Positions 30,624 to 49,632 of a stretch of DNA of 49,632 nucleotides are shown here, piece after piece. The DNA is from Williamsoniiplasma lucivorax ATCC 49196. Its GTDB lineage: Bacteria > Bacillota_I > Bacilli_A > Mycoplasmatales > Mycoplasmataceae. Each line of letters begins with the position of its first letter. The first letter of the stretch is position 1. A model generated the notes under the pieces. It saw only the letters and a program-made list of their open reading frames with translations. It had not been told where the DNA came from and made no database searches. Made by a program: the position numbers and the translations under genes. The stretch is taken from NCBI RefSeq assembly GCF_000518285.1, contig NZ_JADH01000011.1, positions 1-49,632 of the forward strand, read 5' to 3'.

Positions 30624-30866
30624 ATGCCAAATAAAGATATTCAACCAAAATATTTCGATAATGCGAAATTTGTATGTACAACTTGCGACAGCATAATGGA
30701 AATCGGTTCAACAAAAGCCGAAGAAATTAGAGTTGATGTTTGTTCAAATTGCCACCCTTTCTATACAGGGAACCAACAATTTTCAAATACAGCTGGTCGT
30801 GTTGAACAATTCAAAGCAAAATTTGCAAAAAAAGATGAACTTAACGCAAAGAAAAACAAAAATTAA
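30624..30866 (+). CDS. rpmE: 50S ribosomal protein L31
   Basis: Large-subunit protein bridging to the small subunit. It has 80 residues. It is the zinc-binding (C+) form: two Cys pairs, FVCTTC and VCSNC, followed by the family HPFYTGNQ segment. A zinc-free paralogue is not present in this window. A basic Lys-rich tail follows. GGAG ribosome site before ATG 30624. Confidence 0.96.
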   Translation: MPNKDIQPKYFDNAKFVCTTCDSIMEIGSTKAEEIRVDVCSNCHPFYTGNQQFSNTAGRVEQFKAKFAKKDELNAKKNKN

Positions 30867-30946: not shown

Positions 30947-32839
30947 ATGGGTTATAAATTAAGTAATTTAAAATTTGTTGATAAAAAGCACATTTTGGAT
31001 AATGTTCATTTTGAAATAAATGATTCTGAGTTTACAACCATTTTTACCCAAGATAAAAAACAAAAAAAATTTATCAAAGATACTTTAAAAGGTAAAAAAC
31101 GAATTTTATCTGGCAGATTTCAAATTGATGATGCTGATCTAGTTGGTTCAAAATTTGTTAAAAGCAAAGTTGATTTTATTGCTCCAGATATTTGGTTTGA
31201 ACGTCTGATTCCCCCAAGAATCATTTTGAATTTATCACTTTTATTTGACCAAAAATTTTTAAGACTGGCACGCATTAAAAAAAATGATAAAAAATTTGAT
31301 TATTTATCATTTGTTGATTCACACAATGATTTGACTGAAATGCAATTAAGAAGAGAAATTGATAAAACAATTTCGTTTTTTTTAAACAAAGCCATTAATT
31401 TGAACAAAACTTTGCACAAAGCATTTATTAATGAAATCAAAAAAATTAATAACAAGCAAAATGAAAAAATGTTTGCTCAATTTTATGCCCAAATCAAAGT
31501 GATGATTATGGAATATTTTAATTTGATTTTAAAATGAGAATTAGATAATCTAGCATTAACATTTTATCAAGTTGTTTGAGATCAAATTTACAGTTTCCAA
31601 GACTTAAGACATTCATGCCCATGTGAATATAATGTGAAACATTCATCAAATGAACATTTGAAAGATAATATTTTTAAATTTAAATATAAGCAGCCATACT
31701 ACATGATTCAAAAACAATTAAAAATCATTAACATCCGAATTTCGGAATTACGTATTGCTTTATTTAAAACAAAAAAATTAACTCGAGCCACAAAAAAACA
31801 AATCACTTGGGAAATTAAGAAATTTTTTATTGATAATAAGATTCCCAAAGAAGAACAGGCAGTTGTTCATGAATATTTAAATAATTGAAAAAAAACAATC
31901 CAAGATTTAGTTGATGATTTTAAAGTCTCACAAAAAAAAGGAATTTTAGAATCAATCCGTCAAGAAGGTGCAATTATTGAAAAGGAAATTATCCATTTAA
32001 CTCATGAATACCATAAAAAAGTTTTAGCGCAAACGAATAAAATTGGGAATAAAAATGAGTTTAAAATTCTGAAAAAACATTATAAAAAACAAATTGAAAG
32101 TATTTATAAACAATCCATGACTTGAACTCAAGAAAATTTGAAAAAACTGAACATTAAATTTGATTGATATTTAAAAAGTGGTTTTAAAATTTCTTCAATC
32201 AACATTATTTATCTGAAAATTTTAAAAGCCATTAACATGCACAAGAAGAATATTGTTTTTTATAATATTATTAAATTACTAACTAAAAATGACGTCAAAT
32301 TATTGATGAATACTATTCAAGCAATTCAAAAAGAACACCCTAATCTTTGTTTCATTAATTTAACTGATGATTTTAGTTCCATCATCGATTTTAAACAAAA
32401 AGTTTACGCAGTCAACCCGAAAAATCAATTAACAAATATTACCCCAGAAGCAATTTATAATAAAGGTGTTTTACAATCAATGAAACCTTTTACCAATATC
32501 AATTTAATTTCTTATAAAAAAGTAGAACAAGGTATTGAGTTTGAAGAAAGGTTTTGACCAGTGCAAAGCACATCATTTAATGAAACTGGAAAAATTAATA
32601 TTAACCCTTTTATGATAAAATTAGAAGAGCAAAAAGATGTTGCCGGGCAATTAATTCTTGAAGTTTTAACAAAAGTCACTTATAAATTTTTAGACCGTAA
32701 AATGTGAGTGGGCATAACTAATTCAGGAAGTAAAATTAATTTTTATTCAAATCGCAAACTTGAACCGAATAAAAAAATTTTAATTTATATCCAACCAGCA
32801 GCTATTATTATTAAAAAGGAGACAAATGTTAACTCGTAA
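30947..32839 (+). CDS. Degenerate ABC-ATPase-like protein (PotA/MalK-type), catalytic motifs lost
   Basis: A 630-residue open frame with no transmembrane segment. The N-terminus follows an ABC-ATPase start (YKLSNLKFVDKKHILDNVHF, then EINDSEF), but the Walker A loop reads FTQDKKQKKFIKD at residues 32-44 and lacks the glycines and Lys-Thr/Ser. About 300 residues of Lys-rich helix follow. Residues 420-490 resemble the second half of an ABC domain: IVFYNI in place of Walker B, TKNDVK as D-loop, LTDDF with Asp474 in place of the H-loop His, and TPEAIYN. The last 70 residues resemble a TOBE domain. It overlaps the DHH gene by 14 nt. No partner permease is adjacent. Family assignment is my inference. 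Confidence 0.55.
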
Positions 32840-33770
32840 AGAAGCAAAATTTATTGCTAAAAAAATTAATGAATACAAAAATATTGTGATTGTCAAACAT
32901 CAATTACCCGATTGGGATGCACAAGGAAGCGCCATTGGTTTGGCGCATTTGATTAATGATAATTGAAAAAATAAAAATATTTTTGTTGCAGGAGATCGCT
33001 TGCATGATGAACAACAATTTGCCAAACCTTTGAATCAACAAGCATTAAGCGAAGCATTAATTATCACTGTTGATACAGCAGTTGCTAGCAGACTTGATTT
33101 CAACGAATGAAAGCAAGGTAAAGAAAGTATTAAAATTGATCACCATATTGCTGTTGAAGATTATGCCACTTATAATTTTGTGGATGTTAATGCGATTGCA
33201 GCAGCACAAGTTGTGACAATGTGAGCAGTCATAATGAAATTAAAAATTTCTCCAATCGCTGCTGAAAATCTTTACAAAGGAATTTCCACAGATTCTGGCC
33301 GCTTCTTGTTTCAAGCAACTAATGCTGAAACTATGGAAGCAGCGAAACAATTATTATTAGCTGGGGCTGACCTAACTAAAATTAATAATTATCTATATGT
33401 CACAAATTTAAAGCAAAGACAATGAAATAATTTTGCATTTAGTAAAATGCAATTAACAAAAAATGGAGTTGCATATATAATTATTGAGGAAAAAGATTAT
33501 AAAGATTGAAATATATCTTATTATGACATTAAAGCCGCTCTTGGAACTATGGCTGGATTGGATGAAATTAAAATCTGATTTACAGTTATTGAGTGAGAAA
33601 AAGAATATAAAGTTTCAATGCGTTCAAGAGAATATGACGTCAATTCAGTTGCTGTAAAATATAACGGTGGAGGTCATAAAGTTGCTAGTGGTGCAAAATT
33701 AACAAACCTTGATCAACTGAAAGGTTTTCTTCGTGAAACAGAAAAACTTGTTAAAAATATAAAGGGGTAA
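32826..33770 (+). CDS. DHH-family phosphoesterase (NrnA/MgpA-like)
   Basis: A predicted nano-RNase / pAp phosphatase or related cyclic-dinucleotide phosphodiesterase of 314 residues. The DHH domain shows KHQLPDWDAQGSA near residue 24, VDTA near residue 82, and the DHH triad at residues 105-107. The C-terminal DHHA1 domain ends with GGGHKVASGA near residue 282, the substrate-recognition signature. The expected metal ligands appear present, although the first motif is DWDAQG rather than the commoner DxDALG. ATG 32826 lies inside the end of the upstream gene, and tdk follows after 2 nt. Confidence 0.9.
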
Positions 33771-33772
33771 AA

Positions 33773-34384
33773 ATGAAAAATAATATTTTGTCAAAACAAA
33801 ATTGTGAAAAATTAGGATGAATTGAATTAATTACTGGATGTATGTTTGCTGGTAAAACCGAAGAATTTATTCGTCGTTTAAGGAGATATGATTACGCTAA
33901 ACGCAATGTGATTGCATTTAAACCAATCATTGACCAAAGATATTCAGTCAATTCAATTGCATCTCATGCTGGTTCAATGTTGCCATCATTCCCAATTTCT
34001 TCAACTGAAGAAATTAAAGATATCTTTGAAAAAGAAAATAAAAGAAAACCAATTGATGTTGTCGGAATTGATGAAGTGCAATTTTTAGATAATCAAATTG
34101 TTGCTTTCATTGATCAACTTGCTAGTCAAGGTATTATTGTCATTGTCACTGGGTTGGATAAAGATTTTAGAAGTGATCCTTTTAAAAATGTTGATCAATT
34201 ATTACCAATGGCTGAATTTGTTGATAAATTAACTGCTATTTGTCATTCATGCGGAAACTTTGCCAACCGTACCCAAAGATTAGTTAATGGCGGGTATGCC
34301 AAAAAAACAGATCCATTAATTTTAGTTGATGGACAAGATAGTTATGAAGCACGTTGCCGAAATTGCTATGTAAAACCAGAATAG
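33773..34384 (+). CDS. tdk: Thymidine kinase
   Basis: Type II thymidine kinase phosphorylating thymidine for dTTP supply, important in organisms that rely on nucleoside salvage. It has 203 residues. P-loop GCMFAGKTEE at about residues 22-31, Walker B-like DVVGIDEVQF near residue 98 with catalytic Glu, and zinc-binding Cys pairs CHSCG (near 155) and CRNC (near 196). GGGG ribosome site overlaps the DHH stop region. It is followed 13 nt later by prfA, an arrangement common in Firmicutes. Confidence 0.95.
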
Positions 34385-34397
34385 AAAAGGGGATTAT

Positions 34398-35492
34398 ATG
34401 AATCCAAAAACTCTTGAAGCTTTAGAAACTATGGAAAAACGCATCAATAAAATTGATGTCGAATTACAAGATGAAAATATTACTTCAGATATTAAAAAAT
34501 TAACTGAACTAAATAAAGAAAGATCTAGTTTAGAAGATGTTGTAGCTAAATTCCAAGAATATAAAAAAGCTTTAGCTTCAATTAATGAAGCTAAAGAAAT
34601 TTTTAATATTGAAAAAGACCAAGAGATGATTGAACTTGCTAAAATGGATTTACAAGAAAATGAAGAAATCATTGAAAAATTAGTTCCGGAAATTGAACAA
34701 ATGTTAATTCCTAAAGATCCAAATGATGAGAAAAATGTAATCATTGAAATTCGTGGTGCGGCTGGTGGAGATGAAGGGAATATTTTTGCTGGCGACCTTT
34801 TCAAAATGTACAAATTATATTGTGAAAAAGAAGGTTGAAAAATTAATATTATGGAAGCTTCAATATCTGAGGCTGGTGGTTATTCACAAATTGTTTTCAT
34901 GGTTAAAGGTGATGGAGTTTATTCGAAATTAAAATTTGAATCTGGAGCACACCGTGTGCAACGTGTTCCTAAAACTGAAGCGAAAGGGAGAATTCAAACT
35001 TCAACAGCCACTGTTGCTGTCTTGCCAGAAATGAGTGATGTTGAAATTAGTATTAAACCAATAGATTTAAGAGTTGATACTTATCGTTCATCTGGAGCTG
35101 GGGGTCAACACGTTAACACCACTGATTCAGCTGTCAGAATTACTCACCTGCCAACAGGGATTGTTGCTTCTAGTCAAGATGGTCGTAGCCAACTTGATAA
35201 TAAGGAAACAGCGATGAAAATGTTACGTGCCAAAGTTTATGAAGCCGAAGTTGAAAAACAACAAGCTCAAGCTGATGCAACAAGAAAAAATGCTGTTGGA
35301 ACTGGAGCAAGATCTGAAAAAATAAGAACTTATAATTACCCCCAAAATCGTGTCACTGATCACCGTGTTGGTTTAACATTAAATAAACTTGATCAAGTTA
35401 TGGAGGGGAACATTGATGAATTTATTATTAGTTTAATTAATGAACATCAATTACAAAAAGTTGCTCAACGTCTTGAAGAGGAAGCTGGGTAA
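34398..35492 (+). CDS. prfA: Peptide chain release factor 1
   Basis: Terminates translation at UAA and UAG. It has 364 residues. The peptidyl-transferase motif GGQ is at residues 235-237 ([10 protein letters not shown]), and the stop-recognition tripeptide PxT is PKT at residues 191-193. RF1 does not read UGA, which agrees with UGA being Trp here; mollicutes of this type lack RF2. It overlaps prmC by 1 nt. AAAAGGGG ribosome site. Confidence 0.96.
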
Positions 35493-49305: not shown

Positions 49306-49632
49306 ATTCCAAAACACACGATTAACTTTGTAGTAAGTTAATAATGAAGAATGGAGATAACACATGAAAAAACAACCAAAAGATTCTTTCGAACAAGGTC
49401 TAGACCTAATACTTGAAAATGAAAAAGATTTTTCAAAAATTTTTAATGAAGATGGGCTATTTAAAAAGCTAACAAAAAGAATTGTTGAAAGGGCTTTAAA
49501 TACTGAAATGGATGCCTATTTAGGGTATGAAAAATATAACCGAAATACAGATGAAAATAACTATCGAAATGGGACAAGTTCCAAAACAATTTTGACTGAA
49601 AATGGTGAAATTGATTTAGTCATTCCAAGAGA
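49282..49632 (+). mobile_element. IS256-family insertion sequence, left part
   Basis: The left end is probably at about 49282, where GGGTCTGTAAAGAATTTTGT begins, a typical IS256-type terminal repeat. It interrupts the permease gene. A small hairpin ATTAACTT/AAGTTAAT follows at 49321-49342. The right end and target duplication are outside the window. Confidence 0.7.
49364..49632 (+). CDS. IS256-family (Mutator-type) transposase, partial
   Basis: The first 89 residues of a DDE transposase of about 400. The signature N-terminal segment is clear: ERALNTEMDAYLGYEKY, then NYRNGTSSKTILTENGEIDL and VIPR at the window end. The frame is open and shows no decay, so the element may be active. ATG 49364 follows TGGAGATAA. 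Confidence 0.9.
   Translation, partial: MKKQPKDSFEQGLDLILENEKDFSKIFNEDGLFKKLTKRIVERALNTEMDAYLGYEKYNRNTDENNYRNGTSSKTILTENGEIDLVIPR

What the first reader, a model, noticed from the sequence alone, without database searches (positions are those of the whole stretch)
30947..32839. A 630-residue ABC-ATPase look-alike with all nucleotide motifs replaced
The N-terminal 100 residues and residues 420-490 line up with the two halves of a PotA/MalK-type ATPase, and the C-terminus with a TOBE domain. Walker A reads FTQDKKQKKF, Walker B ends in Tyr-Asn instead of Asp-Glu, and the H-loop His is Asp474. A Lys-rich helical block of about 300 residues separates the halves. The frame is intact and coupled to a DHH phosphoesterase, so it is kept by selection rather than dying. 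A dead ABC domain reused as a binding or regulatory protein would be unusual.
Basis: partly seen in the sequence, partly recalled or inferred. Interest (0 to 1): 0.7.

Follow-up and report, generated by a model that had tools for sequence, protein, structure and literature searches.

The report
Ancient dead ABC-ATPase kept by selection
This bacterial gene encodes a sugar-transporter motor protein that lost every part of its ATP-burning engine long ago, yet every sampled relative in one large branch of the wall-less bacteria (mycoplasmas and their kin) still carries it, and a matching gene survives in the laboratory-made minimal cell, so it must now do a different, still unknown job.

Summary
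Window 30947-32839 (code 4, TGA=Trp) encodes a 630-aa protein, X. AlphaFold2 plus Foldseek gives a MalK/MsmX/GlcV-type ABC ATPase with TOBE domain, interrupted by about 300 helical residues. Walker A, Q-loop, signature, Walker B, D-loop and H-loop residues are lost in essentially all of 74 aligned relatives, so the loss is ancestral. X is present in every genome of three families (60, 5 and 9 genomes) and in none of 246 others of the order. It sits at one locus, rpmE-X-nrnA(DHH), usually followed by tdk-prfA-prmC, and is under purifying selection. The gene order matches JCVI-syn3 rpmE/0137-0138-nrnA/0139-tdk/0140. MMSYN1_0138 was already noted as ABC-like with a non-conserved ATP site (PMC6629657), so the bare fact is known.

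New here: X is a full-length dead paralogue of a Mollicute sugar ATPase with the same insertion. The insertion holds an invariant Asp, Cys-x-Cys, His set, with ligand swaps that suggest a metal site, absent from the intact paralogues. I read X as an ATP-independent binding or scaffold protein; partner unknown.

The parts
30947..32839 (+). X: 630-aa pseudo-ABC-ATPase (dead UgpC/MalK-type NBD + helical insertion + TOBE)
30947..31264 (+). N-terminal half of the NBD (residues 1-106); Walker A position 31046-31072 (T34-F42), Q-loop Gln position at P80
31265..32146 (+). helical insertion (residues 107-400), homologous to the insertion of intact long sugar ATPases
31580..31582 (+). codon of D212, invariant in 74/74
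31616..31624 (+). C224-x-C226, invariant in 74/74 (putative metal ligands)
32003..32014 (+). H353-x-x-H356 (H356 invariant in 74/74, H353 in 62/74; putative metal ligands)
32147..32446 (+). C-terminal half of the NBD (residues 401-500): degenerate signature (S416), Walker B Y439-N440, H-loop D474
32447..32836 (+). TOBE/OB-type C-terminal domain (residues 501-630)
30624..30866 (+). rpmE (L31), conserved upstream neighbour
32826..33770 (+). DHH phosphoesterase (NrnA-like), conserved downstream neighbour, overlaps X by 14 bases
33773..34384 (+). tdk, conserved cluster
34398..35492 (+). prfA, conserved cluster

Best explanation
X is an ancient, catalytically dead paralogue of the long UgpC/MalK-type (CUT1) sugar-ABC ATPase of this bacterial group. 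Shown by computation: it keeps the NBD fold, the helical insertion and the TOBE domain; it has lost the residues needed to bind and hydrolyse ATP; it is single-copy, fixed at one locus and under purifying selection throughout three families. Inferred: it cannot work as a transport ATPase and instead acts as a nucleotide-independent, soluble binding or scaffold protein. In that reading a bound metal ion (probably zinc; D212, C224, C226, H356 and H353) pins the bases of the two helical hairpins of the insertion, which, with the strongly basic N-terminal half, form the binding surface. The partner is not known. The basic charge and the gene cluster (L31, nanoRNase NrnA, release factor RF1) make an RNA- or ribosome-related partner my first guess (about 35%), ahead of a transporter-regulating role (about 25%).
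For: Fold: AF2 pLDDT 88, and Foldseek top hits are CUT1/PotA-type ATPases including their TOBE. Catalytic residues: retained by 0/74 at Walker A G4 and G6, signature second Gly and Gln, Walker B Glu, D-loop Asp and H-loop His. Distribution: 60/60 family genomes plus all 14 genomes of f9 and f11, 0/246 elsewhere in the order. Synteny: X next to DHH in every locus examined. Selection: dN/dS 0.06-0.36 in the close pairs and 0.14 for X versus its 74% relative L010. Paralogy: the X profile matches the intact ATPase L151:2191-4113 end to end (E 4e-17) and its insertion alone (E 4e-7); insertion profile score 47 versus 18.5 reversed and at most 17.5 shuffled. Metal site: D212, C224, C226, H356 in 74/74; the 12 members without H353 carry an added Cys or His right after CxC. 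Basic charge: +6.6 per 100 aa, the most basic of the window's ORFs of 230 aa or more; family mean +4.8 versus +2.2 for intact paralogues. No permease gene on this contig. Kept in the minimal genome as MMSYN1_0138 by gene order.
Against: No function is shown by any result here. The H353-lacking members form one clade, so ligand compensation is one loss with two kinds of replacement, not many independent events. Charge is inflated by AT-rich codon usage. Two of 60 family genomes have X broken by a frameshift.
Confidence: 0.82

Rival explanations
1. X is a pseudo-NBD subunit of a transporter: it pairs with an intact ATPase (PotA or the long sugar ATPase) or sits on permeases as a brake, like the regulatory role of the MalK TOBE domain.
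For: NBD+TOBE fold of importer ATPases; intact long paralogues with homologous insertions exist in the same genome next to permeases; PotA-like ATPases occur in all family genomes.
Against: No permease gene on the window's contig. X occurs in 60/60 family genomes but a close long sugar ATPase in only 21/60, so it is not that ATPase's obligate partner. Q-loop, D-loop and signature, which make the NBD dimer interface, are all lost.
Confidence: 0.25
2. X is a dedicated partner of the DHH phosphoesterase NrnA encoded directly downstream (overlapping by 14 bases), for example positioning nanoRNA or pAp substrates.
For: X-DHH adjacency in every locus examined across three families.
Against: The whole rpmE-X-DHH-tdk-prfA-prmC block is conserved, so adjacency is not specific. 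The remaining families of the order lack X, while M. pneumoniae NrnA is reported as an active oligoribonuclease/pAp phosphatase (cited in PMC6609329).
Confidence: 0.25
3. X is a decaying pseudogene.
For: All ATPase motifs are gone; two genomes of genus g8 have frameshifts.
Against: Nearly all aligned relatives have a long uninterrupted frame; dN/dS well below 1 in the close pairs; invariant residues over deep divergence; kept in a designed minimal genome.
Confidence: 0.02
4. X is an SMC/Rad50-like protein: split ABC halves joined by a coiled coil with a zinc hook.
For: A long helical insertion between the NBD halves, containing a Cys pair.
Against: A TOBE domain follows the NBD and the best fold hits are sugar ATPases; CxC plus His, not CXXC at the apex; the insertion alone has no significant PDB match, best E 0.085; the insertion is homologous to that of sugar ATPases.
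Confidence: 0.02

Closest known systems
MMSYN1_0138 of JCVI-syn3.0 (Mycoplasma mycoides)
   Same: Same position: rpmE/0137, 0138, NrnA/0139, tdk/0140. Published as homologous to ABC ATP-binding regions with a non-conserved ATP-binding site (PMC6629657).
   Different: Its sequence could not be fetched here, so orthology rests on gene order and that description. The paper reported no clade-wide conservation, paralogue origin or metal site in the passages I read.
Long UgpC/MalK-type sugar ABC ATPases of Mollicutes (L069:1215-3113, L070:911-2746, L151:2191-4113)
   Same: NBD halves, helical insertion at the same point, TOBE, similar length (611-640 aa); profile match end to end.
   Different: Those have intact Walker A, LSGGQ, Walker B and H-loop and lie beside permease genes; none of the 23 long ATPases examined has CxC in the insertion.
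Spermidine PotA (MMSYN1_0197 family, NF043075)
   Same: Same CUT1/PotA-type NBD+TOBE superfamily.
   Different: About 340-360 aa, no insertion, active motifs.
Degenerate NBDs of heterodimeric ABC exporters (e.g. BmrCD, TAP; from general knowledge)
   Same: A non-hydrolysing ABC site kept by selection.
   Different: Those still bind ATP and are fused to or paired with transmembrane domains; X has lost the binding motif itself and has no strongly hydrophobic segment.

Membership tests
ABC ATPase, functional | Walker A GxxGxGK[ST] | tested here: not met
   T34, K37, Q39, K40, K41 at the five positions; the Gly at positions 4 and 6 retained in 0/74
ABC ATPase, functional | LSGGQ signature | tested here: not met
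   second Gly and Gln retained in 0/74
ABC ATPase, functional | Walker B Asp and catalytic Glu; H-loop His | tested here: not met
   Glu 0/74, His 0/74, Asp 7/74
CUT1/UgpC-MalK-type NBD by descent | NBD plus TOBE fold | tested here: met
   Foldseek top hits GlcV, MsmX, MalK, SugC; UgpC/GlcV models match distant members to their C-terminal end
CUT1/UgpC-MalK-type NBD by descent | shared helical insertion of Mollicute long ATPases | tested here: met
   insertion-only HMM matches L151 insertion E 4e-7, colinear; control alignments score far lower
CUT1 transporter subunit | encoded with permease and binding-protein genes | tested here: not met
   no PF00528 match on this contig; neighbours are rpmE and DHH
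MMSYN1_0138 orthologue group | same gene order and ABC-like without an ATP site | tested here: met
SMC/Rad50 | apical CXXC hook and no TOBE | tested here: not met
   CxC near the end of a helix away from the hairpin tip, TOBE present
Zinc-binding protein | bound metal | not testable with these tools
   conserved ligand-like set only
Pseudogene | relaxed selection, broken frames | tested here: not met
   dN/dS 0.06-0.36 in close pairs; long uninterrupted frame in nearly all relatives

The most novel reading that the evidence does not exclude
A whole clade of wall-less bacteria turned a sugar-transport ATPase into a nucleotide-independent, metal-clamped RNA- or ribosome-binding (or NrnA-binding) core factor, needed even in the minimal cell: a complete change of function of an ABC ATPase outside transport.
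Probability: 0.35. Interest if true: 0.8.

Novelty: new variant of a known kind. Interest (0 to 1): 0.58.

Why it matters
MMSYN1_0138 is one of the unexplained genes of the minimal cell, whose genome was built from essential and quasi-essential genes. Showing that it is an ancestrally dead, clade-wide conserved sugar ATPase with a specific invariant site in its insertion turns 'putative ABC protein, doubtful' into a testable hypothesis: look for metal and for a non-transport partner, and mutate C224/C226/H356 rather than the old ATP site.

Tried and rejected
P0001 alone against Pfam, NCBIfam and PDB sequences: no significant hit; weak hits (ParE-like toxin, TilS C-terminal domain) are below cut-off. 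Foldseek of the insertion alone: no PDB match below E 0.001; the listed coiled coils (dynein, Smc5/6, ClyA) are length and helix effects. I first read the insertion as unique to X; the paralogues showed it is not. I first read H353-x-x-H356 as invariant; the distant families f9 and f11 lack H353. DHH partnership from adjacency: weakened because the whole cluster is conserved. A genome-contig scan with the deep alignment failed for lack of a conserved stretch; a subset scan named four Mesoplasma/'Acholeplasma multilocale' orthologues only. Literature searches for pseudo-ABC ATPases and for the long Mollicute ATPases found nothing relevant.

Full report
Check of the observation. The window comes from a bacterium that reads TGA as Trp: CTP synthase, RF1 and EF-Tu in the window are whole only under code 4. 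Under that code 30947-32839 is one 630-codon frame.

The ABC relationship is real. Alone, P0001 has no significant Pfam, NCBIfam or PDB-sequence match. With relatives it does: the N-terminal 106 residues match intact long ATPases at E 3e-13 and the C-terminal part at E 6e-11. The most distant relatives match UgpC, GlcV and MMSYN1_0197 (PotA) models at E 1e-9 to 2e-18, in part up to the end of the TOBE domain. AlphaFold2 on a 50-sequence alignment gives pLDDT 88 and pTM 0.78, and the Foldseek hits below E 1e-5 are nearly all importer ATPases of the GlcV/MsmX/MalK/SugC/PotA type.

Distribution and locus. A search of 60 family genomes found X in all 60, in 12 of 12 genera. A search of 320 genomes of the order with the family profile and with the insertion profile found it in all 60 of f1, 5 of f9 and 9 of f11. 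No full-length relative appeared among the other 246; only short ABC or helix matches did. The locus is rpmE-X-DHH, usually followed by tdk-prfA-prmC. Named members include Mesoplasma seiffertii, M. photuris and M. grammopterae. JCVI-syn3A has rpmE/0137, NrnA/0139 and tdk/0140, so X is by position MMSYN1_0138, which Antczak et al. [quoted passage not shown] That paper states that the 473-gene minimal genome consists of essential and quasi-essential genes. I could not fetch the 0138 sequence itself.

The loss is ancient and the gene is not dying. Over 74 relatives, no sequence keeps Walker A Gly-4 or Gly-6, the signature second Gly or Gln, the Walker B Glu, the D-loop Asp or the H-loop His. In the 24 closest pairs dN/dS is 0.06-0.36, and 0.14 between X and its 74%-identical relative L010 (dS is near saturation there). 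Nearly all relatives have a long uninterrupted frame; two genomes of one genus show a single frameshift.

Origin. The same genome encodes two intact 611-632-residue sugar ATPases beside permease genes, with insertions of about 280 residues between Q-loop and signature. An f9 genome encodes another (L151:2191-4113). The X profile matches L151 end to end (E 4e-17), and the insertion-only profile matches its insertion colinearly (E 4e-7). Insertion against insertion scores 47 in hhalign, against 18.5 for the reversed profile and at most 17.5 for eight block-shuffled ones. X members form one clade apart from the intact ATPases (FastTree support 0.998), on long branches, so its exact sister is unsure. 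I conclude that X is a full-length dead paralogue of this ATPase type.

Where the conservation went. The four residues identical in all 74 relatives all lie in the insertion: D212, C224, C226 and H356. H353 is present in 62. The 12 without it form a single clade and carry either CxCxC (8) or CxCHxxH (4) instead. That is what a four-ligand metal site that swapped one ligand would look like, though it is one loss with two replacements rather than many independent events. None of 23 intact long ATPases has CxC. In the model D212 and C224/C226 lie at the end of the returning helix of one hairpin (129-218), and H353/H356 at the end of the returning helix of the second (251-360). By topology both ends face the NBD, so the site could pin the two hairpins together. 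The insertion model alone is confident (pLDDT 92) and has no significant PDB match.

Mechanism. Shown by sequence and prediction: ABC/TOBE fold, no ATP machinery, purifying selection, invariant insertion site, no permease gene on the contig, no strongly hydrophobic segment. Inferred: a soluble nucleotide-independent binding or scaffold protein whose insertion is held by a metal. Partner: the protein is the most basic of the window's long ORFs, and its conserved neighbours are L31, nanoRNase and RF1, which favours an RNA- or ribosome-related role. Transporter regulation and an NrnA partnership remain open. A close long sugar ATPase is found in only 21 of 60 X-bearing genomes, so X is not its obligate partner.

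Novelty. The bare fact was published for the minimal-cell gene. The clade-wide ancestral loss, the paralogue with a homologous insertion, the selection data and the ligand-like invariant set are additions that I did not find in the papers searched; the library is incomplete.

Noticed in passing
L067 and L068 (genomes G024 and G019): X is split into two overlapping frames by what looks like one frameshift in each of these two genomes; sequencing error or real decay not decided.
   Followed up: partly
L151:2191-4113 and L152: Intact 640-aa sugar ATPase with a helical insertion homologous to that of X, the best surviving active cousin.
   Followed up: yes
window 49364-49632: Start of an ORF resembling an IS256-type transposase, judged by eye, running off the window end.
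   Followed up: no
L025, L026 (genus g2): No tdk was detected directly after the DHH gene; L026 has two DHH frames in tandem.
   Followed up: no
L132, L133, L135, L136, L137, L138, L139: The intact long sugar ATPases of Mesoplasma-type genomes have an even longer gap between Walker A and LSGGQ (about 450-535 residues).
   Followed up: no
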